Assembly: GCA_016521575.1 (NCBI GenBank)
Contig: JAEKDP010000011.1
Coordinates: 1 to 64,000, forward strand
DNA length: 64,000 nt
Source of the DNA: Rhodobacteraceae bacterium F11138
GTDB taxonomy: Bacteria; Pseudomonadota; Alphaproteobacteria; Rhodobacterales; Rhodobacteraceae
Direction of reading: 5' to 3'
A program made the translations under genes and the position numbers. Shown here piece by piece: positions 28,141 through 40,467 of the stretch (position 1 is its first letter; each line of letters begins with the position of its first letter). The notes under the pieces were generated by a model that saw only the letters and a list, made by a program, of their open reading frames with translations, was not told the DNA's origin and did no database searches.

Positions 28141-29385
28141 TTACTTTGTTTCGGGGGGCGGAAGGAAATGCACGTTGTGCAGCCCCGCAAGCCGGACCAC
28201 CTCATCGGGGTCGGGCACCTTGTCGATCGCGGCGAAAAGCGAACGCAGCGCCCGGGTCGGCGCAACCCAGAAGAGGCTTGTGGCGTCGTCGTCGGACTCG
28301 TTGAAGATCCCGTGCGGCACACCGCGCGGCATGACCACCAGATCGCCTGTACGAGCCTTGCGTTCTTCCCCGTCAAGACGGATCGTGTATTCCCCGCTCA
28401 GCACATAGACGAATTCATCCTGATCCGGGTGGATATGGGGCGGCACGAAGGTTCCGGGAGGGAAGGTGGCGTGCCAGGCCATGCTGTCCTGCCCATCCTG
28501 TTTCAGGCGGTAGGTCTGTCCCAGGATCTGCCATTCGGTCGCCTCCCAGGTTTCTTCCGCGGTGATGACGCCGCCGGGCATGTCCCCGGCCATCTCGTCC
28601 AGGAACCGGGACACCAGCGCAGCGCTCGACGGCGATTCCTCCAGGATGAGATGACCGGTGTCCGGCACCTGTTCCAGCCGTGCCTCGGGCAGGGCGGACA
28701 GCCAATCCTGCGCTTGCGCGGCGGGGCGCAACCGGTCCTGCGCACCCCAGATCAGAAGCGTAGGCATGCCAAGCCGTGGCAAGCGGCGTGCAAGATCGGG
28801 ATTGCCTTGCGGGTGCGCTTCGAGCAGCCGCGCGAACGCGGTCACTTCGCGGCCCAGGGCGGCGTCAAACTTGGGATCGGGCGCGGCGGGAAACAACGGC
28901 AGGATGCGGGCCGGATCATGGGCAAGATAGCCCGGAAGCTCATCGGGTGCGATCGAGAAGAGATCGGGCGCGGGCGCGCTGTCGCTTACCAGCCCGGCCG
29001 GGGCCAACAGGATCAGCTGCGACACCCGTTGGGGCTGACGCAGGGCAAATTCCGCTGCGATCCAGCCCCCCAGGGAAAATCCGGCCAGCGCGACGCGGTC
29101 AAGTTTCATGGCGTCAAAAAGCGCCATGTAGTGAAATACATGATCTTCGATATTGTGAATGTTCGGCGCTTCCCCGCTCAGCCCGAAGCCGGGGTGAAAG
29201 GGGATGATCACACGGTGGGTTTTTGCCCAGACTCGCGCGGCGTCAAACCCGGTAAAGGTGCCGGTGCCATGCAGGAACACCAGATCAGGTCCCTGTCCCA
29301 TGGTCAGCACCACGGTGTCGACCCCGTCGATCACATGGTCTTGGCGGTCGAACCCGTCGTAACACTCGGGCAATAGGTCTTTCAT
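28141..29385 (-). CDS. Alpha/beta hydrolase fused to a cupin domain
   Basis: A 414-residue two-domain protein. Residues 1-270 are an alpha/beta hydrolase: VFLHGTGTFTGFDAARVW (oxyanion region), nucleophile elbow GFSLGGW, and the catalytic His near DTGHLILEESP. Residues 290-400 are a cupin: FVPPHIHPDQDEFVYVLSGE carries the HxH...E metal-binding set and GDLVVMPRGVPHGIFN carries the second motif with its His. The fusion suggests that a ring-opened or oxygenated product is hydrolysed and then handled by the cupin, or that the cupin stabilises the enzyme. Located between the FMN reductase and MFS genes. Confidence 0.85.
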   Translation of the reverse strand: MKDLLPECYDGFDRQDHVIDGVDTVVLTMGQGPDLVFLHGTGTFTGFDAARVWAKTHRVIIPFHPGFGLSGEAPNIHNIEDHVFHYMALFDAMKLDRVALAGFSLGGWIAAEFALRQPQRVSQLILLAPAGLVSDSAPAPDLFSIAPDELPGYLAHDPARILPLFPAAPDPKFDAALGREVTAFARLLEAHPQGNPDLARRLPRLGMPTLLIWGAQDRLRPAAQAQDWLSALPEARLEQVPDTGHLILEESPSSAALVSRFLDEMAGDMPGGVITAEETWEATEWQILGQTYRLKQDGQDSMAWHATFPPGTFVPPHIHPDQDEFVYVLSGEYTIRLDGEERKARTGDLVVMPRGVPHGIFNESDDDATSLFWVAPTRALRSLFAAIDKVPDPDEVVRLAGLHNVHFLPPPETK

Positions 29386-29419
29386 TTTGTTTCCTTCCGT
29401 TGTGGGATTGTTGCGCGGG

Positions 29420-29977
29420 TCAGGCCGCGCTGCGGCGCTCTCTCAGCAGGGCCGCGAACTGTGCCACGGCAACGTCAAGACGCTGCTCCAGAGAGGGGGC
29501 CAGCGTCTTTCCCTCCAGTTCAGTGGCACAGGCATAGACGGCGGTCGGTACGGTCATGGCTTCGAAATAGCCAAACAGCGGACGCAGGTGGTGTTCCACG
29601 ATCAGCGCGTGGCGCAACCCGCCGCCGCAGGCCGTAAGCAACACCGGCACGTCCCGCAGGGCCCCTTCGGGGATCTGATCGAACACATGCTTGAACAGGC
29701 CCGGATACCCGCCTTGGAATACCGGACACCCGATGATCAAGGCCGAGGCGCTTTCGATCCGCTCCAGCAGGGCGCGGGCGGGGCGGTCCATCTCTTCGCG
29801 GCGGAAGGCTGCGATCCCCGGCCCGGCATCTACGAGATCAAACAGATCCGCGTCGACCCCATGCGCGGCGCGCAGGTTCTGCACTGCGGCCTCGACCAGA
29901 CGCCGGGGCCGCGCCGGACGCCAGCTTGACCCGCAGAACGCCAGCACATGACCTTTGCGCAGGGCAGGTTCCGCCAT
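29420..29977 (-). CDS. NAD(P)H-dependent FMN reductase
   Basis: A 185-residue flavodoxin-fold reductase. It has the phosphate-binding loop region VLAFCGSSWRPARPRRLVEA, the segment ASALIIGCPVFQGGYPGLFKHVFD (typical P.Y.G..pg.lK) and LLTACGGGLRHALIVEHHL. It should supply reduced FMN to the flavin monooxygenase encoded one base upstream (29979), forming a two-component oxygenase. The pairing is inferred from adjacency and from how group D monooxygenases work. Confidence 0.88.
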   Translation of the reverse strand: MAEPALRKGHVLAFCGSSWRPARPRRLVEAAVQNLRAAHGVDADLFDLVDAGPGIAAFRREEMDRPARALLERIESASALIIGCPVFQGGYPGLFKHVFDQIPEGALRDVPVLLTACGGGLRHALIVEHHLRPLFGYFEAMTVPTAVYACATELEGKTLAPSLEQRLDVAVAQFAALLRERRSAA

Positions 29978-29978
29978 C

Positions 29979-31199
29979 TCAGGATGCCTTGTCCTTGATG
30001 CCGAACACGGTCCAGGACGCGTCGGGGTCGGCCACGCCCAACAGACCGCGTCCGCATTCCTCGAAAATCTGGTCGGCCATCAGGATATGCTGCGTGCCAG
30101 AATGAATGTCGCGATAGCACCGTTGCATCACCGTGTTGTGCAGCGATGCGCCGCGCGCCTGTCGATGTGCAAAGGTGGCGGTTTCTGACACCACGTCGTG
30201 AATATGACGCAAGGCCAGCTTGATCATCGTCATCTGGTGCTGCGCCAGCGGCTTGTCCGCGCTCAGCGTGTCCGATGCTTCGCGCCAGGTTTCATGCACC
30301 AGAGCACGGGCCGCGCGGTACTTTGCTTCGGCCTGCGCGAATTGGAAACGAAAGCTGGGGCTGTCTGCCGAGGGTCCGAAGGCATCACGGCGTGGCACGA
30401 TCACCTTGACCAGTTCGTCCAGCATCCGCCGGCCGACACCCATTGCCCACATGGAATGGACCCAGGCTGAGAAGCCGGCCAGCCCGATGCTACCCTGCCG
30501 CGATCCACGCAACGGCTGCTCGATGTCGAAATCATAGCATCGTTCTGACGGAACGAAGATTTCTTCGCCTTCGGCCACGCCGTAGTCAAAGCTGCCGGTG
30601 GCACGCAGGCCCAGCACATCCCAGTTTCCTTTCAGGACGATCGTGTCGCGGGGGTGATGGCAGATGATCACCTTGGGTCCGCTTTCGCCCATGATCATCT
30701 CGCCCTTGTCATCGACCAGGAAGCAGCCGGTGTGAATCCATTCGGCGTGCTGAATGCTGCTGCCATAGGCCCAGTTGCCCCAGATCCGATAACCGCCGTC
30801 GACCTCGCGCGCGAAACCGCGGGGCACGCCGTTGCCAGCGACGGTCACATCCACCCCATTGGAGAATATTTCGTCCACACCGGCCTGGGCGATATTGATG
30901 GCCATGGTGGTGCCTTCCATGTTGTTGACACCGACACACCAGCCGACCGAGCCATGCGCGTGGGCCAGTTTTTCGCCGATGCACATTGCTTCATAATGGG
31001 TGATCTCGGGTCCGCCGACCTCGGTCGGGAACAGCATCGTATACAGCCCCGTACTGCGCAGTTCCGCCACGACGTCATCGGTCAGATGGCCGAGCGCCTC
31101 GGCCTCGGCGGCACGCTCCTCGATGAGGGGCAGCAGAGCTTCGGCCCGGGCCATGAGATCCTGAGCGGCGGAGGGCTTGTTTTGAAGTGATAGGTTCAT
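29979..31199 (-). CDS. Acyl-CoA-dehydrogenase-fold flavin-dependent monooxygenase (group D)
   Basis: A 406-residue oxygenase component related to HsaA, HpaB-like and DszC-type enzymes. The N-terminal helical domain (LYTMLFPTEVGGPEITHYEAM), the middle beta domain (DVLGLRATGSFDYGVAEGEEIFVP) and the C-terminal helical domain (RAARALVHETWREA, SGTQHILMADQIFEECGRGL) follow the acyl-CoA dehydrogenase fold, but the catalytic Glu context of true dehydrogenases is not visible. It would hydroxylate an aromatic or cyclic substrate with reduced flavin from the adjacent reductase. The start at 31199 has AAGGA upstream; the 132-bp longer frame is rejected. Confidence 0.84.
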   Translation of the reverse strand: MNLSLQNKPSAAQDLMARAEALLPLIEERAAEAEALGHLTDDVVAELRSTGLYTMLFPTEVGGPEITHYEAMCIGEKLAHAHGSVGWCVGVNNMEGTTMAINIAQAGVDEIFSNGVDVTVAGNGVPRGFAREVDGGYRIWGNWAYGSSIQHAEWIHTGCFLVDDKGEMIMGESGPKVIICHHPRDTIVLKGNWDVLGLRATGSFDYGVAEGEEIFVPSERCYDFDIEQPLRGSRQGSIGLAGFSAWVHSMWAMGVGRRMLDELVKVIVPRRDAFGPSADSPSFRFQFAQAEAKYRAARALVHETWREASDTLSADKPLAQHQMTMIKLALRHIHDVVSETATFAHRQARGASLHNTVMQRCYRDIHSGTQHILMADQIFEECGRGLLGVADPDASWTVFGIKDKAS

Positions 31200-31301
31200 T
31201 CTTTGTCCTTCTTTCTGTAGGTCTGCGGCGTGAGCGCACGGGGGACGAAACCCGGCGCTGATCTGTCTGATATGCTCCTGCGCCGGGCCGGTTCCTCTCA
31301 A

Positions 31302-31319
31302 CCCCCCCGGTTGGGGGGG
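31302..31319. promoter_or_regulatory. C7-GGTT-G7 hairpin in the divergent monooxygenase/LuxR region
   Basis: Seven C (31302-31308), the loop GGTT, and seven G (31313-31319) form a perfect stem about 100 bp before the monooxygenase start and 120 bp before the LuxR start. It may be an operator or a structured 5' leader. Confidence 0.35.
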
Positions 31320-31438
31320 CGTAAACTTCAAGCCTGAAATATCTTGTCAAAGAGCCGGATGCCGCTGTAGGCTTCGTCGGTCAGGCGCTTGGGGAGGGGT
31401 CTGATATTCATCGGCATGTAGCGGTGGGAGGGAGCTTC

Positions 31439-32170
31439 ATGTATGACCAACGACATTTCGACAGTCCCAGGCTGACCGGCCTGTTGGCGCAGGATCTGGT
31501 TGAGATCCTGGATTGCGAGACGCTTCCTGAACTGGGTACGGTCTGTCAGAACGTGCTGTATCGGCTGACAGGTTCAGACGCGATCGGCATCTATCTGACC
31601 CGGAAAACCGGCCCACATCTGCTGTTCAGCAATGCCGTTCCGGATGGGTTTCTGGAAGAATACAGCAGTCTTTTCGGCCCGACCGATCCTTTGATCCGCA
31701 ACCTGGGCAATCATTCGCCGGTGACTGATGCCACCAGTAGCTTTGGTGCCGACAAGTTGAAGACGGCGCCACAATACGAACTGTTGCGGTCCTGGGGTTT
31801 CGGTGAATGCATGTGCGGTCTCATGCGCAGCGGTAGCGCACGGCTGGGGGTGATCTATACCGCCACCCGCGACACGCGACACCGCTATTCTTCCGAAACA
31901 AAGCAGCAGATGTATTATCTGTGTCAGGGCGCTTCGAGCGCGCTGCGCGCGATTCTGCGGGAGGATGCAGAAACCCACCCGCTGCCGCCGCAACTGGGTC
32001 GTGTCGCGAAACTGATCTGCGATGGCAGATCAAACAAGGAAATCGCGCGGCAGTGCGACCTGTCGGAACACACGGTCAAGGAATACGTGCAGACGTTGTT
32101 TGCCCGCTTTGGCGTGGACAACCGGACTGCTTTGGCCGTGCGCCTTGTCCGGTCTAGAGCCCTGAACTGA
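31439..32170 (+). CDS. LuxR-family transcriptional regulator with GAF-like sensor
   Basis: A 243-residue regulator. The N-terminal 165 residues form a ligand-sensing domain of GAF/autoinducer-binding type (GSDAIGIYLTRKTGPHLLF, LRSWGFGECMCGLM). The C-terminal helix-turn-helix is complete (AKLICDGRSNKEIARQCDLS then EHTVKEYVQTLFARFGVDNR). GGGAGGG precedes the ATG at 31439. No luxI is nearby, so it probably senses the cluster's substrate rather than a homoserine lactone, and is placed to activate the divergent monooxygenase operon. Confidence 0.85.
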   Translation: MYDQRHFDSPRLTGLLAQDLVEILDCETLPELGTVCQNVLYRLTGSDAIGIYLTRKTGPHLLFSNAVPDGFLEEYSSLFGPTDPLIRNLGNHSPVTDATSSFGADKLKTAPQYELLRSWGFGECMCGLMRSGSARLGVIYTATRDTRHRYSSETKQQMYYLCQGASSALRAILREDAETHPLPPQLGRVAKLICDGRSNKEIARQCDLSEHTVKEYVQTLFARFGVDNRTALAVRLVRSRALN

Positions 32171-32575: not shown

Positions 32576-33391
32576 TCAGGCGCTTTCCTCATCCGGGTTG
32601 CCCGCCATGATGCAGACGGCTTCGGCGACGTTCTTGGCAATCGGAGCCGATGCATCCTGAGGGAGCAAGACAGTCGTTTCGGATACGTCGAGATCGGCCA
32701 GCTGATATGGCGTGCCATGCCCGAATTCCAGATGCCCGCGTCCGATGATGCCCAGGACCAGCGGTGCGGCGGGTTGCTGGACCACCTGCGCGATGCGACA
32801 GGCAAAGGCGCGATCCCAGGTTTGTTGTGCACGCACAAAGCGATCGAATGCCGGATCATCAGCCGATTGTGCCGCTCTGTCCGGACGCTGGCCGCCGGTG
32901 ATATCGAACAGATATTGCCGGTATTCGGGTGTTGCGGGCACGGCCGGGGTGATCCCTTCGCGCTGCGCTTCGGGAATGGCGTCCCACCCGTCTTTCCCCA
33001 CCTCACTGACCAATCCGCGATGGCAATTCAGCCCGATCATCGGGATTGAGTGATCCCGGCAAAAGCGAAAGATCGGCATGTACAGTTCGGGGTCAAAACG
33101 CCACACATCGTTCCATTCGCTACGTTCGATGAACGTGGCTTCGGAAAGTTCGCCTTTGCTCCATTCCTGCAGAACAGGTGTCAATCGGGCCGGGAACATT
33201 TCGAAACCCATGACAATATCTGTGCGATGCGCGAGCAATCCCGCCGCAACATGCATCTGCCAACGATGATTGTCGGCGCGGTCGTGCTGTTCGCCCAACA
33301 GAACAACCCGGGATTTGCTGGCCGCAAAGATCACGTCGGAATGAGACAGCGCATTGCCGTCTCGCGGGGATATCCATGTGCCCGCCTTCAT
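32576..33391 (-). CDS. ChaN-family haem/iron-associated protein
   Basis: A 271-residue protein of the ChaN/Tiki superfamily, a group that includes haem-binding lipoproteins linked to iron uptake. Signatures are SRVVLLGEQHDRADNHRWQ with the GE.H..H pattern near residue 33, DIVMGFEMFPARLTPVLQEW, PMIGLNCHRGLVSEVG and the C-terminal LGIIGRGHLEFGHGTPYQL. No lipobox or signal peptide is apparent, unlike ChaN itself, so it is likely cytoplasmic. The start overlaps the stop of the HmuS-like gene as ATGA. The last gene of the haem operon. Confidence 0.8.
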   Translation of the reverse strand: MKAGTWISPRDGNALSHSDVIFAASKSRVVLLGEQHDRADNHRWQMHVAAGLLAHRTDIVMGFEMFPARLTPVLQEWSKGELSEATFIERSEWNDVWRFDPELYMPIFRFCRDHSIPMIGLNCHRGLVSEVGKDGWDAIPEAQREGITPAVPATPEYRQYLFDITGGQRPDRAAQSADDPAFDRFVRAQQTWDRAFACRIAQVVQQPAAPLVLGIIGRGHLEFGHGTPYQLADLDVSETTVLLPQDASAPIAKNVAEAVCIMAGNPDEESA

Positions 33392-34089
33392 GCCTGCTCT
33401 CCCAGGCGGCGAACCGACAGCCCGATACGATTTCCTGCGGCATCCAGGGCAAACGAGATGTCACCATCGGCCTGCCAATCGGACACGGTTCCACCCTTCA
33501 GATGCAGATGAAAATCCTTGGTCATCACATTGCTGAAGCCCATTGCCGGTTTCACGTCTTCGATACGCCCGTGCCAGGCCTGTCTGAAACCCGGTCGGGT
33601 CACCGCGATTTCGACCCCCGCGCCCACCAGCGTCTGCAGGAAAACGTGTCCTTCATCCGTTTCGAGATCCGGTTGTTCGTCATCTTCGGGTGTGCTGGAA
33701 GAATTGCGCGGGCCTGTTGCGCTGCGTGTCAGCGGGGCAAGCGGGTCTGTGAACGGATCCAGGCCGTCCATTCCGACAATGGAAAAGACCGCTGCGTCAT
33801 CCTGTCCGACAAATTCAAGCCGGGGATAGGTCTTTACCCGCATTTCAGACGACGTATCCAGCACAACGCCGCTTAGTGCGGAGATGTCGATCTCTGCGTC
33901 GTGCGCTTCCCCCTTCAACGCCAGGGACCCGTCATTTTCACTGACGCTGTCCACGATCCCGATCCGTTCATGGGTGGCGCCGTTCTCACGGAAGATGACC
34001 ATGAGCTTTCCCATTTCGGGAAGTTTCACAAGCACCTCTGATGGTGTTGCGCCTTCCAGGCGCCAGCGGTTTTCTTCAAGTTGTGTCAA
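33388..34089 (-). CDS. Short HmuS/ChuS-like haem-utilisation protein
   Basis: A 233-residue protein that I relate to the HmuS/ChuS haem-handling family. LPEMGKLMVIFRENGATHER resembles the first repeat (LP.lG.vma.tRN..avHE) and DFHLHLKGGTVSDW resembles the FNLHLre..i...W segment near the HmuS C-terminus. It is about 100 residues shorter than HmuS and the middle is replaced by an acidic Ser/Glu/Asp linker. I place the start at TTG 34089, which overlaps the ABC gene's TGA stop as TTGA and has AGGA 8 nt upstream. Likely cytoplasmic haem carrier or degrader; the family match is moderate. Confidence 0.62.
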   Translation of the reverse strand: MTQLEENRWRLEGATPSEVLVKLPEMGKLMVIFRENGATHERIGIVDSVSENDGSLALKGEAHDAEIDISALSGVVLDTSSEMRVKTYPRLEFVGQDDAAVFSIVGMDGLDPFTDPLAPLTRSATGPRNSSSTPEDDEQPDLETDEGHVFLQTLVGAGVEIAVTRPGFRQAWHGRIEDVKPAMGFSNVMTKDFHLHLKGGTVSDWQADGDISFALDAAGNRIGLSVRRLGEQA

Positions 34090-35807
34090 GCTGATTTCCT
34101 TTCTATTCGATCCCTGTGCCCGATTGCCCAGGTGCGATAGGGGGCGAGCGCCTTGGGGGGCCGATGCGCGACACACAGCAGCGTCGTGTTCGGCAGTTCC
34201 TTTTTCAACAAGGCAAACAATTCGGTTTCCGCCTGCAGGTCGAGCGCGCTGGTGGCTTCGTCCAGCAGGGCAAAAGAGGGCTTGTGGATCAGCAGCCGCG
34301 CGATGGCGAGGCGTTGGCGTTCGCCCATCGAAAGCCCCTGGACGGCTTCACTGCCCTCAAGGCCAAGTCGATCCCGACAATGGGGCAGGCCCACAAGGTT
34401 CAGAACCTCGTGCAGGCGCGCGTCGGATACCTCCGCCGGATCACTTGGGTAACAGATCGCGGCGGCAAGGCTTTCATTGAAGACCCGTGGCACCTGCGGA
34501 AGCGCAACCAAACCGTCCCGAGGTCCGTCTATCGAACCTTCGCCATATGGCCACAGCCCTGTCAGCGCCGACAGAAGCGTCGTCTTGCCAGCGCCGGAAG
34601 GACCGGAAACCCAGATACGTTCGCCCGCTTCAATCCTGATGTCAGGGACCGGCGTCAATGCTGTTCCGTCGGGTGTGTGCAGTCTCAGGCCCGCGACGCT
34701 CATCCCGGCGTCTGTTGATTGCTTTCGCCGTATCGCGCGCGGGACACCGGGCATCGGTTCCGGATCCGCGGTATTGGCAAAGAGATCGTCAAGACGCTGG
34801 GCAACCGCGGCAATTTCCGCGAGATCCCGATAATTGAAGATAAACCAGCTGAGCGTTGTCGCCACCGAAGAGAAGGCGGATGCCAGTTGCATCAAGCCAC
34901 CGAAAGTCACCGCCTTGGCGAAATAGGCCGGCAGTGCAAAAAAGAGCGGAATCCGCAGGATCGAGCGGTAATACGGCTTGGTGAAAAGGCCGAGAATGAA
35001 TTCACGCCCGATCAGCCGGTTCCAGTTGTTCTTGATCGCCACAAACCGACGATCCAGCCGCTTGCGCTCGGCGTTTTCACCCCGCGATTGGGCTATTTCG
35101 GTTGCATTGTCCCGAACCTGAACAAGCGCATGTCGAAAATCTGCTTCGCGGCGCTCTTGTCGAAAGACCAGCCCCTTGAGCGGCTTGCCCAGAAGGTGTG
35201 TGATCAAGGTCGATCCAGCGACATAAAGGAATGCAAGCCAGACCATGTAGCGAGGGATCGTGACATCCCAACCAAGCAATTCGAATTCCAGCGCAAACCC
35301 TGACAGGTTCCACAGGATCGCCACATAGGACACCAGCGCGACGACGTTCGTGATCACATCGATTGAGACCACAAGCAGAAGTCGAATGAAGTTGCGACAA
35401 TCTTCGGCGATGCGTTGATCCGGATTGTCCACGGCGGCGGGCGAAAGCCCCGGGCGCAGGTGCCAGTATGCCGCCTTGCCCAGCCAGGACCGCAATGCGG
35501 CATCGGTGAGACGTTCGCGCCAGAACAGCAACAACTTGTCGCGAATCCATTGCCCGAACAGGGCCGCCGCAGCCCAGAGCCCAACCAGACCGGCAAAGAC
35601 CGAAAGCTGGGCAATGGCCTCTGAAACGTCGAACTGTTCCAAGGCGTCGTAAAACACCTTGGTCCAGGAAATCATCTGTACCGAGATCCAGACGCCTAGA
35701 AACTCAAGACCCAGCACAGCTGCGTAAAGACCGAAACCGATCCAGCTGCGCGGCCCCAGGGCCGCGCGTCTGAACAACCTGTAGATGCTGCCAAAGAAAT
35801 TCAGCAT
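34086..35807 (-). CDS. YddA/SbmA-type ABC transporter, fused membrane and ATPase domains
   Basis: A 573-residue half-transporter. The N-terminal membrane domain (about 1-310) has the ABC_membrane_2 hallmarks WRERLTDAALRSWL, DNPDQRIAEDCRNF and FRHALVQVRDNATEIA, as in YddA, BacA/SbmA and ABCD proteins. The C-terminal ATPase has Walker A WVSGPSGAGKTTLLSALTGL, signature LSMGERQRLAIARLL and Walker B FALLDEATSALD. In YddA-like proteins the direction of transport is uncertain. Its position between a TonB haem-type receptor and a HmuS-like protein suggests a role in moving haem or a siderophore across the inner membrane. The ATG lies 5 bp beyond the receptor gene stop. Confidence 0.87.
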   Translation of the reverse strand: MLNFFGSIYRLFRRAALGPRSWIGFGLYAAVLGLEFLGVWISVQMISWTKVFYDALEQFDVSEAIAQLSVFAGLVGLWAAAALFGQWIRDKLLLFWRERLTDAALRSWLGKAAYWHLRPGLSPAAVDNPDQRIAEDCRNFIRLLLVVSIDVITNVVALVSYVAILWNLSGFALEFELLGWDVTIPRYMVWLAFLYVAGSTLITHLLGKPLKGLVFRQERREADFRHALVQVRDNATEIAQSRGENAERKRLDRRFVAIKNNWNRLIGREFILGLFTKPYYRSILRIPLFFALPAYFAKAVTFGGLMQLASAFSSVATTLSWFIFNYRDLAEIAAVAQRLDDLFANTADPEPMPGVPRAIRRKQSTDAGMSVAGLRLHTPDGTALTPVPDIRIEAGERIWVSGPSGAGKTTLLSALTGLWPYGEGSIDGPRDGLVALPQVPRVFNESLAAAICYPSDPAEVSDARLHEVLNLVGLPHCRDRLGLEGSEAVQGLSMGERQRLAIARLLIHKPSFALLDEATSALDLQAETELFALLKKELPNTTLLCVAHRPPKALAPYRTWAIGHRDRIERKSA

Positions 35808-35812
35808 CGCAA

Positions 35813-38071
35813 TCAGAACGTCATATCAAACGAGATGGTAAAGGTACGTCCCGCCCCGGTCTGCAATTCGATCGGATTGGAACGTGCGACGGCGGCTGAC
35901 GCGCTTTGCGAATAGGTCGCGGCGTTCGCGGTGAAATACCGTTTGTCGAATACATTCTGAACCCCGAAGTTCAGCGTTCCGTTGGGGACGACCTGCCAAC
36001 TGGCATACAGATCCAGCAACCCGTATCCGGCGGGTTTGTAATCATCCGCACTATCGGTTTCCGTGACAGCAGATGCGAGCGTGCCCACCGCTTCCAGTGT
36101 GAGATCGTATTGTGGCAAATCCTGTCGCAGGCTGATCACGGCCGTCAGCGGCGGCAAGGTATGCGGTGTTTCGCCGGCATCCCAGGAAACCTGCTGCGTC
36201 CCTTTTTGCCAGGATGCCGAGAACGTTCCGCTCAGCAGATCCGAGAAAGCCCAGGCTGCAGAGGCTTCGACACCCCAGACATCCACACTTGACAGATTCC
36301 GGTATGTATACTGTGCGGTACCAGGGATGTTGTAGAAGCTTTGAATGAAGTTGTCGTATTTTGCCTTGAAGCCGTTTACCGCAAAATAGCCGTTTCCATA
36401 CTCACCGCGCAGGCCGATTTCATAGCTTTCGACCTCTTCCGGTTCCAGATTCGGGGCGGGTATCAAGTCAAAGAAACTGCCGGGCACCGATGTGAAAAGT
36501 TGCTGAGCCGTCGGCATCTTGAAGCCTTCGCCGTATTTGGCCCATACGGAATAGGTATCGTCGAAACGGTAGATTGCCCCCAGACTTTTGAGCAGCTTGC
36601 TGTCGTCACGCACCCGTGGCTCAAGACCGGCGACCGGCTTGTAATCGGCATTGACGCGCGGCGTGATTTTGTAGGTTGCATAGCGCAGACCCGGCGTCAG
36701 TCCGAACCGGCCGTTGCCGAAAACGATGCGATCCTGAACGAACAGATCCGCCCGGCGGGTATCGGAATTCGCAAAGTTGAAACCCCCCGCCGGTCTTGTC
36801 GAAACCGCGCCGGTCGTCAGGTTGGTTTCAACGTCAAGTCGTGAATAGTCGGATTTGGTCAGATCACCGTCAAATCCGAATATCAGATTGTGTTCGGTCT
36901 GGCCCGTCATGAAAACCGAATAGGCCTGAACGTCAAGTTCAAGGAACTCTTCGCTATAGCTCATGTAGTCTTGCGTTCTGATGCTGTCACCTGCGGCGGA
37001 TTGCGACAGTTCGGTGCCGGACCGCTCGTATCCGTTTGGCGAAAAGGACAACATCGATCGGACGTTGTCGATAAACCCTACGTCCGGTGTCCAGGTGTGT
37101 TCGATCGCATAGCGATCGCGTTTGAGATCCAGCTTGCGGTTCTTGTTGTAAATGATTTCGCCGGTCGGCAATCCGGTGAACGAAGAATATTGCGGCCCCA
37201 GAAGATAATTCTGCTGAACACTGGTATCGCGTCTCAGGATGTCTGCGGTGAATTCCAGACGGTGCCGGGTGCTTGGGGTCCAGACCAGCTTGGCAAGCAG
37301 ATGATCAGAACTGCTTTTGGTCGGGTCGAATGCGTTACAGGGCGTCGCGCCCCAGTCCAGATTGCGTGGACAGCCGTAGATCCCGCCATCGGCGCGGGCA
37401 TTTGACAGTTGGGGTTCACTGCCATCGGAACGCGCATACCCCAGAAGAACCTGCACCGTCGGGGATAGCTGCTGCGCGAAATTGAGCGAAGCCGTGGTTC
37501 CCTTGTCGAATGAATCATAGGCGAGCCTGGCTTCCAGGCCCTGATCTTTGCCGTCCAGGATGTCCTCGGGATCAATCGTCTCAAATGCGACAACACCGCC
37601 AAGCGCATCTGAACCCCACAGAACGGAAGATGGTCCGCGAAAGACCTCGACCTGCTTGATAAAGCTGAAATCCACATAGTCCCGCGTGCCGTCGATGATG
37701 CGCTCGGCCACGCGCGACCCATCGACCTGCAATTGCACCCGGTTGCCCCCGACACCCCGGATATTGATGCCGCCAAAGGTGCTGAACGGGTCGGTCGCTG
37801 TGGTCTGGCGCCCGGTTGTGACCCCGGGAATCGTGCGGGTCAGTTCGCCAAAGTCCGTGATGTTGCGGTCCTTGATCTCTTGGCCGTCGATGATCGTGAT
37901 GTTCGAGGGCACATCGAGAACCGTGCTCTCTTCGCGATTGGCTTGCACGACGATCGGTGCGAGCGTGAATGTTTCATTCTCGTCATCCTGTGCATATGCA
38001 GAATATGGTATGTGAATTAGAGCGGTGGTTGCGCACAGGAACAGACGGCGCGCCGTGGGCGATGTCGACAT
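35813..38071 (-). CDS. TonB-dependent outer-membrane receptor, haem/haemoglobin type
   Basis: A 752-residue receptor with a signal peptide (ARRLFLCATTALIHIPYSAY), a likely TonB box around ETFTLAPIVVQA, a plug domain (NITIIDGQEIKDRNITDFGE, GGINIRGVGGNRVQLQVDGS) and a 22-strand barrel ending in FTISFDMTF with the terminal Phe needed for insertion. The plug wording VQLQVDGSR and barrel motifs such as GYGLLDLYASWQVVPNGTLN match the haemoglobin/transferrin/lactoferrin receptor family. It heads an operon with an ABC protein, an HmuS-like protein and a ChaN-like protein. AAGAGAG lies before the ATG. Confidence 0.9.
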   Translation of the reverse strand: MSTSPTARRLFLCATTALIHIPYSAYAQDDENETFTLAPIVVQANREESTVLDVPSNITIIDGQEIKDRNITDFGELTRTIPGVTTGRQTTATDPFSTFGGINIRGVGGNRVQLQVDGSRVAERIIDGTRDYVDFSFIKQVEVFRGPSSVLWGSDALGGVVAFETIDPEDILDGKDQGLEARLAYDSFDKGTTASLNFAQQLSPTVQVLLGYARSDGSEPQLSNARADGGIYGCPRNLDWGATPCNAFDPTKSSSDHLLAKLVWTPSTRHRLEFTADILRRDTSVQQNYLLGPQYSSFTGLPTGEIIYNKNRKLDLKRDRYAIEHTWTPDVGFIDNVRSMLSFSPNGYERSGTELSQSAAGDSIRTQDYMSYSEEFLELDVQAYSVFMTGQTEHNLIFGFDGDLTKSDYSRLDVETNLTTGAVSTRPAGGFNFANSDTRRADLFVQDRIVFGNGRFGLTPGLRYATYKITPRVNADYKPVAGLEPRVRDDSKLLKSLGAIYRFDDTYSVWAKYGEGFKMPTAQQLFTSVPGSFFDLIPAPNLEPEEVESYEIGLRGEYGNGYFAVNGFKAKYDNFIQSFYNIPGTAQYTYRNLSSVDVWGVEASAAWAFSDLLSGTFSASWQKGTQQVSWDAGETPHTLPPLTAVISLRQDLPQYDLTLEAVGTLASAVTETDSADDYKPAGYGLLDLYASWQVVPNGTLNFGVQNVFDKRYFTANAATYSQSASAAVARSNPIELQTGAGRTFTISFDMTF

Positions 38072-38161
38072 ATGACTCTCTTGAGGCTAAATTTTGGAAA
38101 ATCTGGCTGGCGCTCAAGAGGCTCGCGACGGATTGAACGCCACGCGACGTTCAGGGCGCAA

Positions 38162-38189
38162 ATGCTAACTATTTTAGTCAGGTTTGCAA
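38162..38189 (-). promoter_or_regulatory. Candidate iron-regulated promoter of the TonB receptor operon
   Basis: On the minus strand TTGCAA (38184-38189) and TAGCAT (38162-38167) are spaced by 16 bp. The spacer is filled by the near-dyad TAACTA-TTT-TAGTCA (38166-38180), an A/T-rich site in the position expected for a Fur-, Irr- or RirA-type iron repressor. Confidence 0.4.
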
Positions 38190-38623
38190 GAGGCTGTTAA
38201 CCTTTTACAGTGCCGTGCAGAATGAAAACTGGGCGACCTGTCATCCTGAAAGAAGCCTGATACCGCATAGCGGGTGTCGCGGCGAGATATTCGCGCGTGT
38301 TTTCCGCGCCGGGACGGTCATGCCACTGTCGACGACGACCGTCCGCGAGGCTGCCGAATATTCTTCCAGAGCGGTACCATTGAAGCCGTCGATGAAGATG
38401 GTCTGCATTGGCTTGCCGCGCGCGCGGTAGTGTCGGCCAATCCGGGTCTCCTGGCGCCATCTGAAGGCCGCCTCTTTCAGCTTGGTCTTGCCGGGTGCAA
38501 AGCGCGGTCTGGTCCACTTTCCGGAATGCGAACGCTGGCCGGAAGATGCCGATAGGGGGAAATCACGGTCGATCGCGAAAGAAGGGGCGATACAAGATGC
38601 ACCGCCCCTTGGTCGTGTTGTAT
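38190..38623. other. Gap of about 430 bp without a supported gene
   Basis: No reading frame here has a start codon with a ribosome site and a recognisable product. A roughly 110-codon open stretch on the minus strand (about 38560 to 38230) reads protein-like in one frame, including MQTIFIDGFNGTALEEYSA, but lacks a start near its beginning and matches nothing I know. Confidence 0.5.
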
Positions 38624-40210
38624 CTATTTAAGTCCAACCTGATCGAAGATGTGGCCGCCCAGCGGATGCACCACATAGCCTTCGACTTCGGGGCGCATGG
38701 TCATGTAGACAACCGAATGCGCGATTGTGGCCCAAGGCGCCTGATCCTTGAAAATCACCTGCGCCTCTCTATACAGTTTTGCCCGCGCATCCTGATCGAA
38801 CAAGGCTTTGGCCTTTTGCAGTTTGGCGTCAAATTCTTCGTTGCACCATTGCGCGCGGTTGCCGGCCCCGATGCCATCACAACCCAGGTTCACGCCCAGG
38901 AAATTGTCCGGATCGCCGTTGTCGCTTGTCCAGCCCAGCAGGACGGCGCCATCCCGATTGGGGTCTTTGGAACGTTCAAGATATTCGCCCCACTCGTATG
39001 AAATGATTTCGACGTTCACACCGATCTCGGCCATGTCGGCTTGGATGAGTTCGGCCATGCGACGTGCATTGGGGTTGTACGGGCGCTGTACAGGCATTGC
39101 CCAGATATTCAGGTTCAGATTCTCGACGCCTTCTTCGGCCAGCATGGCTTTGGCGGCCTCAGGATCATAGGGGTCATCTTTGATGTCGTCGTTGTAAGAC
39201 CACATCGACGGAGGAAGCGGGTTCTTGGCAATCTGGCCGGAGCCCTGGAAAACCACGTCGATGATCGTCTGCTTGTCGATCGCCATATTCAGTGCTTTGC
39301 GGACCTTGGCGTTGTCGAATGGCGCAACGTTGGTGTTGTAGGCAAGGTAGCCCACGTTCAGGCCCTCTTGTTCCATGACTACGACATCTTCGGCGTCTTT
39401 CATTTCCTGCACATCGGCCGGGTTGGGATAGGCCATGATGTGGCATTCACCCGCCTTGACCTTCAGGTAACGCACTGAAGCATCCGGCGTGATCGCAAAG
39501 ACCAGGCTTTCGACTTTCGCCTTGTCGCCATAGTATTCGTCGTTGCGCAAGTACCGGATAAAGGCGTCTTTCTGATAGGCCTGGAAGCTGAACGGCCCGG
39601 TGCCAATGGGCGCCTGGTTCAGCATCTCGGGGGTGCCGGCCTGGATCATCGCGTCAGCGTATTCCTTCGACATGATCGATCCGAAATCCATCGCCATATT
39701 GGCAAGAAAAGGAGCTTCGGGGCGAGTCAGATTAAAGACAACCGTATGATCATCCACTTTCTCGATGCTCTCGATCAAGTCCGCCATCGACATACTGATA
39801 AAGTTGTCGAATGTCCCTCCGGCCACCGAGTTGTACGGATTCTCAGTGTTGCCTTGACGATCAAACGTGAAAATCACGTCGTCTGCGTTGAAGTCGCGCG
39901 TTGGTGTGAATTGATCGTTGGAATGAAACTTGACACCTTCGCGAAGTTTGAAGGTGATCGTCAGGCCATCGTCGCTGACCTCCCAGCTTTCCGCAAGGCC
40001 GGGCGTCACTTCGGTTGTGCCTACCTTGAATTCGGTCAGACGATCGTAAAGAGGATGACTGGACGCATCAAATGTCGTGCCGGACGCATAGAGCGCCGGA
40101 TCAAATCCTTCGGGTGATCCTTCAGAGCAATACACAAGCGACTGCGCCGATGCTGAAACGCCAATCGCGCTCATCAGCAAGCTGGCGGCTATGCAAGATT
40201 TCAAAGACAA
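38624..40210 (-). CDS. DppA-type periplasmic binding protein (dipeptide/haem class)
   Basis: A 528-residue family 5 extracellular solute-binding protein. A signal peptide runs to SASAQS, and the mature start LVYCSEGSPEGFDPALYASG is diagnostic of the DppA/HbpA subgroup. Other landmarks are DDGLTITFKLREGVKFHS, PIGTGPFSFQAYQKD and NKQ-type AYNTNVAPFDNAKVRKALNM. I place the start at TTG 40210 behind GGGAGGG because the upstream frame to 40270 lacks a ribosome site. E. coli DppA and Haemophilus HbpA bind haem or glutathione as well as peptides. No permease genes accompany it here; the haem receptor operon is 550 bp downstream on the same strand. Confidence 0.88.
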   Translation of the reverse strand: MSLKSCIAASLLMSAIGVSASAQSLVYCSEGSPEGFDPALYASGTTFDASSHPLYDRLTEFKVGTTEVTPGLAESWEVSDDGLTITFKLREGVKFHSNDQFTPTRDFNADDVIFTFDRQGNTENPYNSVAGGTFDNFISMSMADLIESIEKVDDHTVVFNLTRPEAPFLANMAMDFGSIMSKEYADAMIQAGTPEMLNQAPIGTGPFSFQAYQKDAFIRYLRNDEYYGDKAKVESLVFAITPDASVRYLKVKAGECHIMAYPNPADVQEMKDAEDVVVMEQEGLNVGYLAYNTNVAPFDNAKVRKALNMAIDKQTIIDVVFQGSGQIAKNPLPPSMWSYNDDIKDDPYDPEAAKAMLAEEGVENLNLNIWAMPVQRPYNPNARRMAELIQADMAEIGVNVEIISYEWGEYLERSKDPNRDGAVLLGWTSDNGDPDNFLGVNLGCDGIGAGNRAQWCNEEFDAKLQKAKALFDQDARAKLYREAQVIFKDQAPWATIAHSVVYMTMRPEVEGYVVHPLGGHIFDQVGLK

Positions 40211-40467
40211 TTTTCCCTCCCAAGATAATATATCGCGGCGCAGTCCGACGGATGTCCCTTTGATTGTCAAGGCTGAACCCGGAAATACAGGGCACGCATA
40301 ACGTAACTGGATACCGCCGGAACAAAATCTGTTGGCTGCGGCCGGCGGTTGTACTGAATCCGGCGCGCATCCGCCCGGACGCGATATGCACCGGGTGCGG
40401 TAACGGCGTCCTCACGGGCCGGCCCACAAGTATTTTCAGCCATCTTGTAGCATGCTAGTTCTGGGGT

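What the first reader, a model, noticed from the sequence alone, without database searches (positions are those of the whole stretch)
32576..40210. Haem-uptake locus without HmuTUV, using a YddA-type ABC protein
A haem-type TonB receptor is followed by a YddA/SbmA-like fused ABC protein, a shortened HmuS-like protein and a ChaN-like protein, while the usual periplasmic HmuT, permease HmuU and ATPase HmuV are absent. A lone DppA-type binding protein, a class known to bind haem, lies next door. This may be a different way of moving haem or a haem-like siderophore over the inner membrane.
Basis: inference. Interest (0 to 1): 0.6.

Follow-up and report, generated by a model that had tools for sequence, protein, structure and literature searches.

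The report
Second haem-type uptake operon, different pump
A compact set of four neighbouring genes, kept together in scattered alphaproteobacteria, looks like an extra route for bringing in haem or a haem-like molecule through an unusual inner-membrane pump, beside the standard haem system that this bacterium also has.

Summary
The genes are real. On the minus strand, 38071 to 32576, lie a haem-type TonB receptor (closest solved relative PhuR), a YddA/BclA-type ABC protein (closest solved relative Rv1819c, a cobalamin transporter), a shortened HmuS and a ChaN without evident signal peptide; the last three overlap by 4 nt. Sixteen distinct loci in Rhodobacterales and Hyphomicrobiales, five on plasmids, carry all four genes (two with broken or truncated frames), with no binding-protein gene among them. 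In an ABC-first survey of 390 genomes of the order, 7 of 7 strong hits had the set.

'Without HmuTUV' is true of the locus only: the genome has hmuTUV, full-length HmuS and a receptor on another contig. The operon is additional. The DppA-like neighbour is not beside the other operons and is a 77% paralogue of a dpp-operon binding protein: a bystander.

All 15 aligned short HmuS lack the segment with the known haem-ligand histidine and share FHLHL; all 15 receptors lack PhuR's plug histidine. Most likely: an iron-regulated accessory importer of haem or a haem-like cargo, without a periplasmic binding protein. Cargo, direction and regulation are unproven; siderophore-reductase genes adjoin two operons, so a non-haem cargo stays open.

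The parts
35813..38071 (-). TonB-dependent receptor, 752 aa, PhuR type; lacks PhuR's plug-loop histidine
   Evidence: TIGR01786 over cut-off; PhuR 8the, 223 bits
34086..35807 (-). YddA/BclA-type fused ABC transporter (SbmA/BacA-like membrane part + ATPase), 573 aa; proposed inner-membrane importer; the only SbmA_BacA match in the genome
   Evidence: Rv1819c 6tqe, 257 bits; operon clade 100/100
33388..34089 (-). short HmuS-like protein, about 233 aa; probable TTG start at 34089 overlapping the ABC stop codon by 4 nt (the GTG start at 34176 in the ORF list gives a longer protein than most homologues)
   Evidence: (HemS/PhuS/ChuS fold, Z 18.2-18.8)
32576..33391 (-). ChaN-family protein, 271 aa; no signal peptide or lipobox seen by eye, hence probably cytoplasmic
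   Evidence: (C. jejuni ChaN 2g5g, Z 25.7 over 243 residues)
38166..38180 (-). palindrome TGACTAAAATAGTTA, RirA/Iron-Rhodo-box-like, starting 109 bp before the receptor gene; similar sites before most orthologous operons examined
38171..38200 (-). sigma-70-like promoter match (TTAACA-18-TAAAAT, 10 of 12) overlapped by the palindrome
   Evidence: consensus match only; 5 found against 3.9 in shuffles
38624..40270 (-). DppA-type solute-binding protein; neighbour, judged NOT part of the unit

Best explanation
A four-gene, probably iron-repressed, accessory uptake operon for haem or a closely haem-like metal tetrapyrrole. The PhuR-type TonB receptor brings the cargo over the outer membrane (inferred from family). 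The YddA/BclA-type ABC protein, with the exporter-type fold of Rv1819c, takes it from the periplasm into the cytoplasm without a dedicated periplasmic binding protein (inferred from co-conservation and from Rv1819c). The short HmuS receives it in the cytoplasm, using other ligands than the classical HmuS histidine, and the probably cytoplasmic ChaN protein binds or processes it (inferred). It works beside, not instead of, HmuTUV. Shown here: gene content, operon packing, conservation, predicted folds of short HmuS and ChaN, hmuTUV elsewhere. Not shown: direction of transport, cargo, regulation.
For: All four genes together in 16 of 16 distinct loci, L053 and L089 with truncated or broken frames, reached from two starting points: by short HmuS and, for 4 new ones plus L089, by the ABC protein. 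ABC-first survey: 7 of 7 strong hits among 390 genomes of the order (own genome and Puniceibacterium included) have receptor, short HmuS and ChaN beside them; 0 of 2 weak hits do. Of the 11 loci measured, ABC>HmuS overlap by 4 nt in 8 and HmuS>ChaN in 6; in L018 the order differs but all four are kept. The 11 operon ABCs then at hand form one clade, 100/100, on a branch of 0.87. Pairwise distances of the four proteins correlate (rho 0.42-0.81, Mantel p 0.001-0.02), which shared descent alone could give. Receptor is nearest to PhuR, short HmuS to HemS/PhuS/ChuS, ChaN to haem-binding ChaN. ABC is nearest to Rv1819c, then plant ABCD1 and ABCD4. YddA-type ABCs adjoin TonB receptors in 4 of 6 other plasmid loci read (PLSDB gene tables are incomplete) and in E. 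coli yddA-yddB-pqqL. Palindrome before the operon scores at least 12 of 15 in 10 of 14 loci.
Against: The receptor lacks PhuR's plug-loop histidine in 15 of 15 sequences and the tyrosine position is F in 8 of 15 (ligand identities recalled); short HmuS lacks the segment with the classical ligand histidine: the cargo may not be haem. In both Neomegalonema loci (L017, L019) a siderophore-interacting FAD protein gene follows ChaN within 50 bp, and in L019 a siderophore-type binding protein, fused FecCD permease and another such FAD protein lie just upstream; in L051 iron ABC transporter genes lie about 3-7 kb downstream of ChaN. E. coli YddA is reported as a multidrug exporter (PMC9728188 abstract). 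In 8 of 11 operon-bearing genomes a full-length HmuS lies beside a FecCD permease, so haem import here would be redundant. NCBI's annotation calls the plasmid ChaN proteins lipoproteins; I ran no signal-peptide predictor. The palindrome consensus was drawn from these same sequences; 4 of 14 score 10-11, and the genome's own hmu intergenic region scores only 11.
Confidence: 0.54

Rival explanations
1. Same machinery, but the cargo is not free haem: another metal tetrapyrrole, a siderophore, or haem still joined to peptide. HmuTUV handles haem; this operon handles what HmuTUV cannot.
For: HmuTUV/HmuS coexist in most operon-bearing genomes; haem ligands missing in receptor and short HmuS, with a conserved FHLHL; siderophore-interacting FAD protein genes beside 2 of 16 operons; nearest solved ABC relatives include Rv1819c, a cobalamin transporter, and ABCD4; BclA, in the same family, is a peptide transporter (PMC13316013 passages).
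Against: HmuS and ChaN families are known mainly from haem; the receptor passes NCBI's haemoglobin/transferrin/lactoferrin model; no receptor feature found points to a named other cargo.
Confidence: 0.28
2. The receptor and short HmuS serve haem uptake, but haem crosses the inner membrane through the genome's HmuTUV, and the ABC protein does something else.
For: HmuTUV is present in this genome, and a FecCD permease beside HmuS or HutX in 9 of 11 operon-bearing genomes.
Against: The ABC gene is present in 16 of 16 loci and its distances track the receptor's best of all pairs (rho 0.81). One operon-bearing genome (G560) gives no HemS match and only HmuTUV-like genes of 24-40% identity in the two stretches read, of several FecCD places.
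Confidence: 0.1
3. The ABC protein is an exporter that protects the cell from excess haem or other toxic compounds, coupled to a haem receptor.
For: Exporter-type fold by homology; E. coli YddA reported as a multidrug exporter (PMC9728188 abstract).
Against: SbmA/BacA take up peptides, BclA is similar in function, and Rv1819c is called a cobalamin transporter (PMC13316013 passages); FusD is proposed to import the product of a TonB receptor (PMC5095587 and PMC6793856 passages); the palindrome, if an iron-repressor site, fits uptake better than detoxification.
Confidence: 0.07
4. The DppA-like neighbour is the periplasmic binding protein of the system, working with the genome's Dpp permease as in E. 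coli haem uptake.
For: Adjacent on the same strand; E. coli DppA binds haem (recalled).
Against: No close relative beside the 15 other operons; 77% identical to the binding protein of a dpp operon at C12:284059; 552-bp gap with an inverted repeat after its stop codon.
Confidence: 0.03

Closest known systems
Canonical haem uptake HmuRSTUV (Roseobacter hmu cluster, PMC5225302 passages)
   Same: Haem-type TonB receptor and a HemS-family cytoplasmic protein
   Different: No HmuT, HmuU, HmuV in the operon; YddA-type ABC instead; short HmuS without the ligand segment; adds ChaN
Fus ferredoxin system / yddA-yddB-pqqL (PMC5095587, PMC6793856 passages)
   Same: TonB receptor plus fused YddA/FusD-type ABC protein
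   Different: No M16 protease; receptor and accessory genes are of haem families; ABC only 32% (E. coli YddA) to 37% (Pantoea) identical
Rv1819c of M. tuberculosis (6tqe)
   Same: Nearest solved homologue of the ABC protein; SbmA-like membrane part fused to an ATPase; import without a binding protein is recalled
   Different: Not linked to a TonB receptor (recalled); cargo cobalamin and hydrophilic compounds (PMC13316013 passages and reference list)
HemS / ChuS / PhuS
   Same: Two-domain fold of the short HmuS, Z 18.2-18.8 over 211-220 residues
   Different: Segment with the alpha-7 ligand histidine is missing; FHLHL where the genome's full HmuS has FNLHL
ChaN of Campylobacter jejuni (2g5g)
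   Same: Same fold, Z 25.7 over 243 residues
   Different: No signal peptide or lipobox seen by eye in the 11 operon N-termini read, so probably cytoplasmic

Membership tests
HmuRSTUV haem transporter | Haem-type TonB receptor | tested here: met
   TIGR01786 325.2 bits over 323.75; TIGR01785 304.6, under 316.85; PhuR E 6.9e-65
HmuRSTUV haem transporter | Periplasmic HmuT and HmuUV permease/ATPase in the unit | tested here: not met
   No HmuT or HmuU in the window; none within the operon in 15 other loci, though L019 has siderophore-type FecCD and binding-protein genes just upstream
HmuRSTUV haem transporter | Known haem ligands of the receptor (PhuR plug His, FRAP-loop Tyr; identities recalled) | tested here: not met
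   Plug His 0 of 15; Tyr position Y in 7 of 15, F in 8 of 15, F in the window
HemS/HmuS family | Duplicated HemS fold, cytoplasmic | tested here: met
   Model pLDDT 88.7; HemS/PhuS/ChuS Z 18.2-18.8 over 211-220 residues; no signal peptide seen by eye
HemS/HmuS family | Axial histidine on helix alpha-7 (HemS H196, ChuS H193, PhuS H209; PMC6018153 passages) | tested here: not met
   Segment absent in 15 of 15
ChaN family | Cofac_haem_bdg domain and ChaN fold | tested here: met
   PF04187 193.5 bits; 2g5g Z 25.7
ChaN family | Haem binding | not testable with these tools
   Needs protein
YddA/BclA/Rv1819c ABC family | SbmA_BacA/ABC_membrane_2 domain fused to an ABC ATPase | tested here: met
YddA/BclA/Rv1819c ABC family | Import direction without binding protein | not testable with these tools
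   Inferred only; E. coli YddA reported as exporter
Fus/YddAB-PqqL system | Periplasmic M16 protease in the operon | tested here: not met
   The operon has four genes and none is of this family
RirA / Iron-Rhodo-box regulon | 19-bp palindrome before the operon | tested here: inconclusive
   15-bp palindrome, at least 12 of 15 in 10 of 14 loci, 10-11 in 4; published matrix not at hand

The most novel reading that the evidence does not exclude
The operon takes up haem that is still covalently attached to peptide (haem c fragments from dead cells' cytochromes) or another tetrapyrrole that HmuTUV cannot move: a PhuR-like receptor with altered ligands admits it, a peptide-transporter-like (BclA/SbmA-type) ABC brings it in whole, the short HmuS binds it through FHLHL, and the ChaN protein, whose fold is shared with erythromycin esterase EreC, trims it in the cytoplasm.
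Probability: 0.08. Interest if true: 0.82.

Novelty: new variant of a known kind. Interest (0 to 1): 0.55.

Why it matters
If right, haem or a relative crosses the inner membrane of some Alphaproteobacteria through an exporter-fold ABC protein without a dedicated periplasmic binding protein. It would give a cargo to part of the YddA family, described in 2026 as ABC transporters of unknown function (PMC13316013 passages), and suggest that YddA-type proteins are general partners of TonB receptors for large cofactors. Its coexistence with HmuTUV makes the question 'what can HmuTUV not carry?' directly testable.

Tried and rejected
Rejected: that HmuTUV is missing from the genome. Rejected: that the DppA-like protein belongs to the system. 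Rejected as a link to PQQ: I first connected YddB with PQQ uptake from memory; the review names PqqU as YncD.

Led nowhere: the class-wide search with the short-HmuS profile (at most 7 candidates scored per genome) gave 35 of 385 genomes. Only the window's own genome gave a strong match. The others are weak (E 1.7e-10 or worse), in frames of 243-533 aa, and many look like parts of full-length HmuS; of these only G401 was read, and no receptor, ABC or ChaN match was found in the 12 kb fetched. G607 and G716 carry ABC proteins 31-34% identical and no other operon gene in the stretches fetched. The frame between the DppA gene and the receptor was translated but not identified. NCBIfam has no match for the ChaN proteins. 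The HmuT query missed a siderophore-type binding protein that Pfam sees in L019, so one search excludes only close relatives of HmuT, HmuU and the window's SBP5; I tested just 10 flanking ORFs of five loci with Pfam. Literature: listings of searches showed no description of this four-gene unit; the library holds only open-licence papers. Rodionov 2006 and the PhuR ligand paper are not held, so PhuR H124/Y519, the TGA-N9-TCA form of the RirA box and haem binding by E. coli DppA are recalled.

L089 (G742) has ABC and receptor matches in broken frames in a 480-contig draft; it counts for gene content only. L053 has a truncated receptor and short HmuS as annotated. The palindrome was not scored for L053 and L089. 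In one search the rows L085-L088 are translated match stretches, not checked gene starts. The L017 ChaN row begins inside its frame.

Full report
WHAT IS THERE. On the minus strand of the window lie four packed genes: TonB receptor 35813-38071, fused ABC transporter 34086-35807, HmuS-like 33388-34089 and ChaN-like 32576-33391. Pfam and NCBIfam give: receptor TIGR01786 325.2 bits (cut-off 323.75); ABC protein ABC_membrane_2, SbmA_BacA and ABC_tran; HmuS-like PF05171 32.7 bits for its N-terminal half only; ChaN PF04187 193.5 bits. The gaps are 5, -4 and -4 nt. The TTG start of the short HmuS at 34089 rests on the 4-nt overlap and on homologue length. Upstream, after 552 bp, lies a DppA-type binding protein.

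THE GENOME HAS HMUTUV. A search of the assembly (4.48 Mb, 28 contigs, 99.99% complete) found a FecCD permease at C12:319153 and two HemS halves at C12:321100-322026. The fetched stretch shows, in one run, an ATPase over the cut-off of NCBI's haem model (NF010068, 289.9 against 261), a FecCD permease, a Peripla_BP_2 protein and a 350-aa HmuS, with a divergent 700-aa TonB receptor. That receptor is under the cut-off of TIGR01786 (234.1 bits), so the operon's receptor fits the haem model better. 'Without HmuTUV' holds for the locus only.

CONSERVATION. A named-genome scan with the short HmuS found four relatives: Puniceibacterium sediminis, two Neomegalonema and a Rhizobiales MAG. A congener, G004, came from the relatives search (2 of 61 genomes positive, own included). 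All five have receptor, ABC and ChaN genes beside it; the Rhizobiales MAG has the order receptor-HmuS-ChaN-ABC. Plasmid records add Paracoccus aminophilus pAMI4, Devosia neptuniae, two Pannonibacter phragmitetus and a Rhizobium (5 records; 5 of 5 read, all with the four genes). To avoid choosing loci by short HmuS, I searched 390 genomes of the order with the ABC alignment (at most 3 candidates scored per genome): 9 passed E 1e-100. The seven strong ones (own genome, Puniceibacterium again, G644, G560, G558, G708, G742) have matches to the other three genes beside them, G742 in broken frames. The two weak ones (G607, G716) have none. In all, 16 of 16 distinct loci carry the four genes. The set is rare (7 of 390 in that sample) and scattered.

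NEIGHBOURHOODS. Queries with the genome's HmuT and HmuU and the window's SBP5 found nothing in 13 of the 15 other loci. L050 has an SBP5 match about 6.5 kb downstream. L019 has HmuU-like matches about 1.3 kb before the receptor: a siderophore-type binding protein, a fused FecCD permease and a siderophore-interacting FAD protein lie there in the operon's direction, and in both L017 and L019 another siderophore-interacting FAD protein follows ChaN within 50 bp. L051 has iron ABC transporter genes downstream on the other strand. L018 has a divergent tonB gene before the receptor. So two of 16 operons lean towards a siderophore context; no gene of this kind lies among the four.

TREES. The 11 operon ABCs then at hand form one clade (100/100, branch 0.87) apart from E. 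coli YddA (32% identity to the window protein), a Fus-type Pantoea protein (37%), and Agrobacterium, Klebsiella, Burkholderia, Bradyrhizobium and Azospirillum relatives (33-38%). Pairwise distances correlate for all six pairs of genes (rho 0.42-0.81; Mantel p 0.001-0.02), best for receptor and ABC; shared descent contributes.

PARTS. Receptor: best solved relative PhuR. PhuR's plug loop carries a histidine (H124 by recall) that falls in a gap of the window receptor; all 15 operon receptors aligned have the short loop without histidine, and the tyrosine (Y519 by recall) is F in 8 of 15, including the window. ABC: best solved relative Rv1819c 6tqe (257 bits), then plant ABCD1 and ABCD4. Short HmuS: profile matches ChuS and HemS; the model (pLDDT 88.7, six rows) aligns with HemS, PhuS and ChuS at Z 18.2-18.8 over 211-220 residues, and one half with HutX/ChuX at Z 8.8-9.9. 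The segment that holds the axial histidine (HemS H196, ChuS H193, PhuS H209; PMC6018153, passages) is missing in 15 of 15; H194 and H196 in FHLHL are invariant (15 of 15), where the genome's full HmuS has N and H; H40 is kept in 13 of 15. ChaN: model Z 25.7 over 243 residues with C. jejuni ChaN; next come a Bacillus protein (15.1-15.3), the effector HopBA1 (14.7) and EreC (14.4-14.7), so the wider fold says little about function. No signal peptide is evident by eye in 11 N-termini, against NCBI's family label 'lipoprotein'. HmuS and ChaN would thus both be in the cytoplasm, on the delivery side of an importer.

REGULATION. A palindrome TGACTAAAATAGTTA starts 109 bp before the receptor gene and overlaps a weak promoter match. 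Sites of at least 12 of 15 occur in 10 of 14 upstream regions; for the six of these that were shuffled, at most 1.2% of 500 mononucleotide shuffles reached the score. The other four regions score 10-11 (shuffle fractions 0.036-0.694). The consensus was drawn from these same sequences. The Iron-Rhodo box is described as a 19-bp palindrome similar to the RirA box (PMC4618611, passages); I could not test the published matrix.

CO-OCCURRENCE. Of 11 operon-bearing genomes tested, 8 have full-length HmuS beside a FecCD permease (G000, G004, G421, G422, G424, G644, G708, G742); G423 has HmuTUV-type genes and a ChuX/HutX protein. G558 has HmuTUV-like genes (HmuU 51% identity) but no second HmuS; G560 has no HemS match and, in the two stretches read, only HmuTUV-like genes of 24-40% identity. 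The operon therefore usually adds to HmuTUV.

NEIGHBOUR. The DppA-like protein has a 77% identical paralogue at C12:284059 (one of 27 matches listed, the query's own place included), followed, after a masked stretch and a peptidase-like gene, by dppB-, C-, D- and F-like genes read by eye.

PRECEDENT. FusA-FusB-FusC-FusD and yddA-yddB-pqqL pair a TonB receptor with a YddA-type ABC (PMC5095587, passages; E. coli K-12 map); FusD is proposed, not shown, to import an iron-sulphur cluster (PMC6793856, passages). On plasmids, 4 of 6 other YddA-type ABCs read also adjoin a TonB receptor; 2 of 6 do not. PMC13316013 (passages) calls the YddA family of unknown function, places the peptide-transporting BclA inside it, and names Rv1819c as the nearest structure. 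Against import stands the report of E. coli YddA as a multidrug exporter (PMC9728188, abstract).

VERDICT. A real, conserved, apparently unnamed four-gene operon; best read as an accessory importer of haem or a haem-like cargo with an ABC protein that needs no dedicated binding protein. The loss of known haem ligands in two of its proteins, HmuTUV elsewhere in the genome, and siderophore genes beside two of the operons leave room for a different cargo. Works like a haem uptake system: likely. Member of HmuRSTUV: no, defining parts are absent. The listings of searches showed no description of it.

Noticed in passing
window 38232-38576 (-): A reading frame of about 110 codons without obvious start between the DppA-like gene and the receptor; it may be a gene remnant. 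Translated, not identified.
   Followed up: partly
window 38582-38610 (-): Perfect 8-bp inverted repeat AAGGGGCG/CGCCCCTT just after the DppA-like stop codon, possibly ending its transcript; seen by eye, not reported by the terminator scan.
   Followed up: no
L055 (G423:C3:580000-597000): A hmuTUV-type locus with a PhuR-like receptor and a ChuX/HutX protein, no HmuS; its receptor also lacks a plug-loop histidine.
   Followed up: partly
L017 9527-10567, L019 36-3777 and 9547-10575: Siderophore-interacting FAD proteins directly after ChaN in both Neomegalonema operons, and a siderophore-type ABC set just before the operon in L019.
   Followed up: partly
L061 (Burkholderia glumae plasmid p48s2p): TonB receptor-tonB-exbB-exbD-YddA-type ABC-thioredoxin cluster: a TonB-to-inner-membrane unit with no annotated binding protein.
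   Followed up: no
L059, L060 (Agrobacterium sp. T29 and Klebsiella variicola plasmids): Sigma factor-FecR-TonB receptor-YddA-type ABC clusters with nearly the same layout in an alpha- and a gammaproteobacterium, both on plasmids typed as conjugative.
   Followed up: no
window 28141-31331 (-): FMN reductase, HsaA-type monooxygenase-like and alpha/beta-hydrolase-cupin fusion genes in one run beside a LuxR-type regulator (31424-32170): looks like a small catabolic cluster.
   Followed up: no
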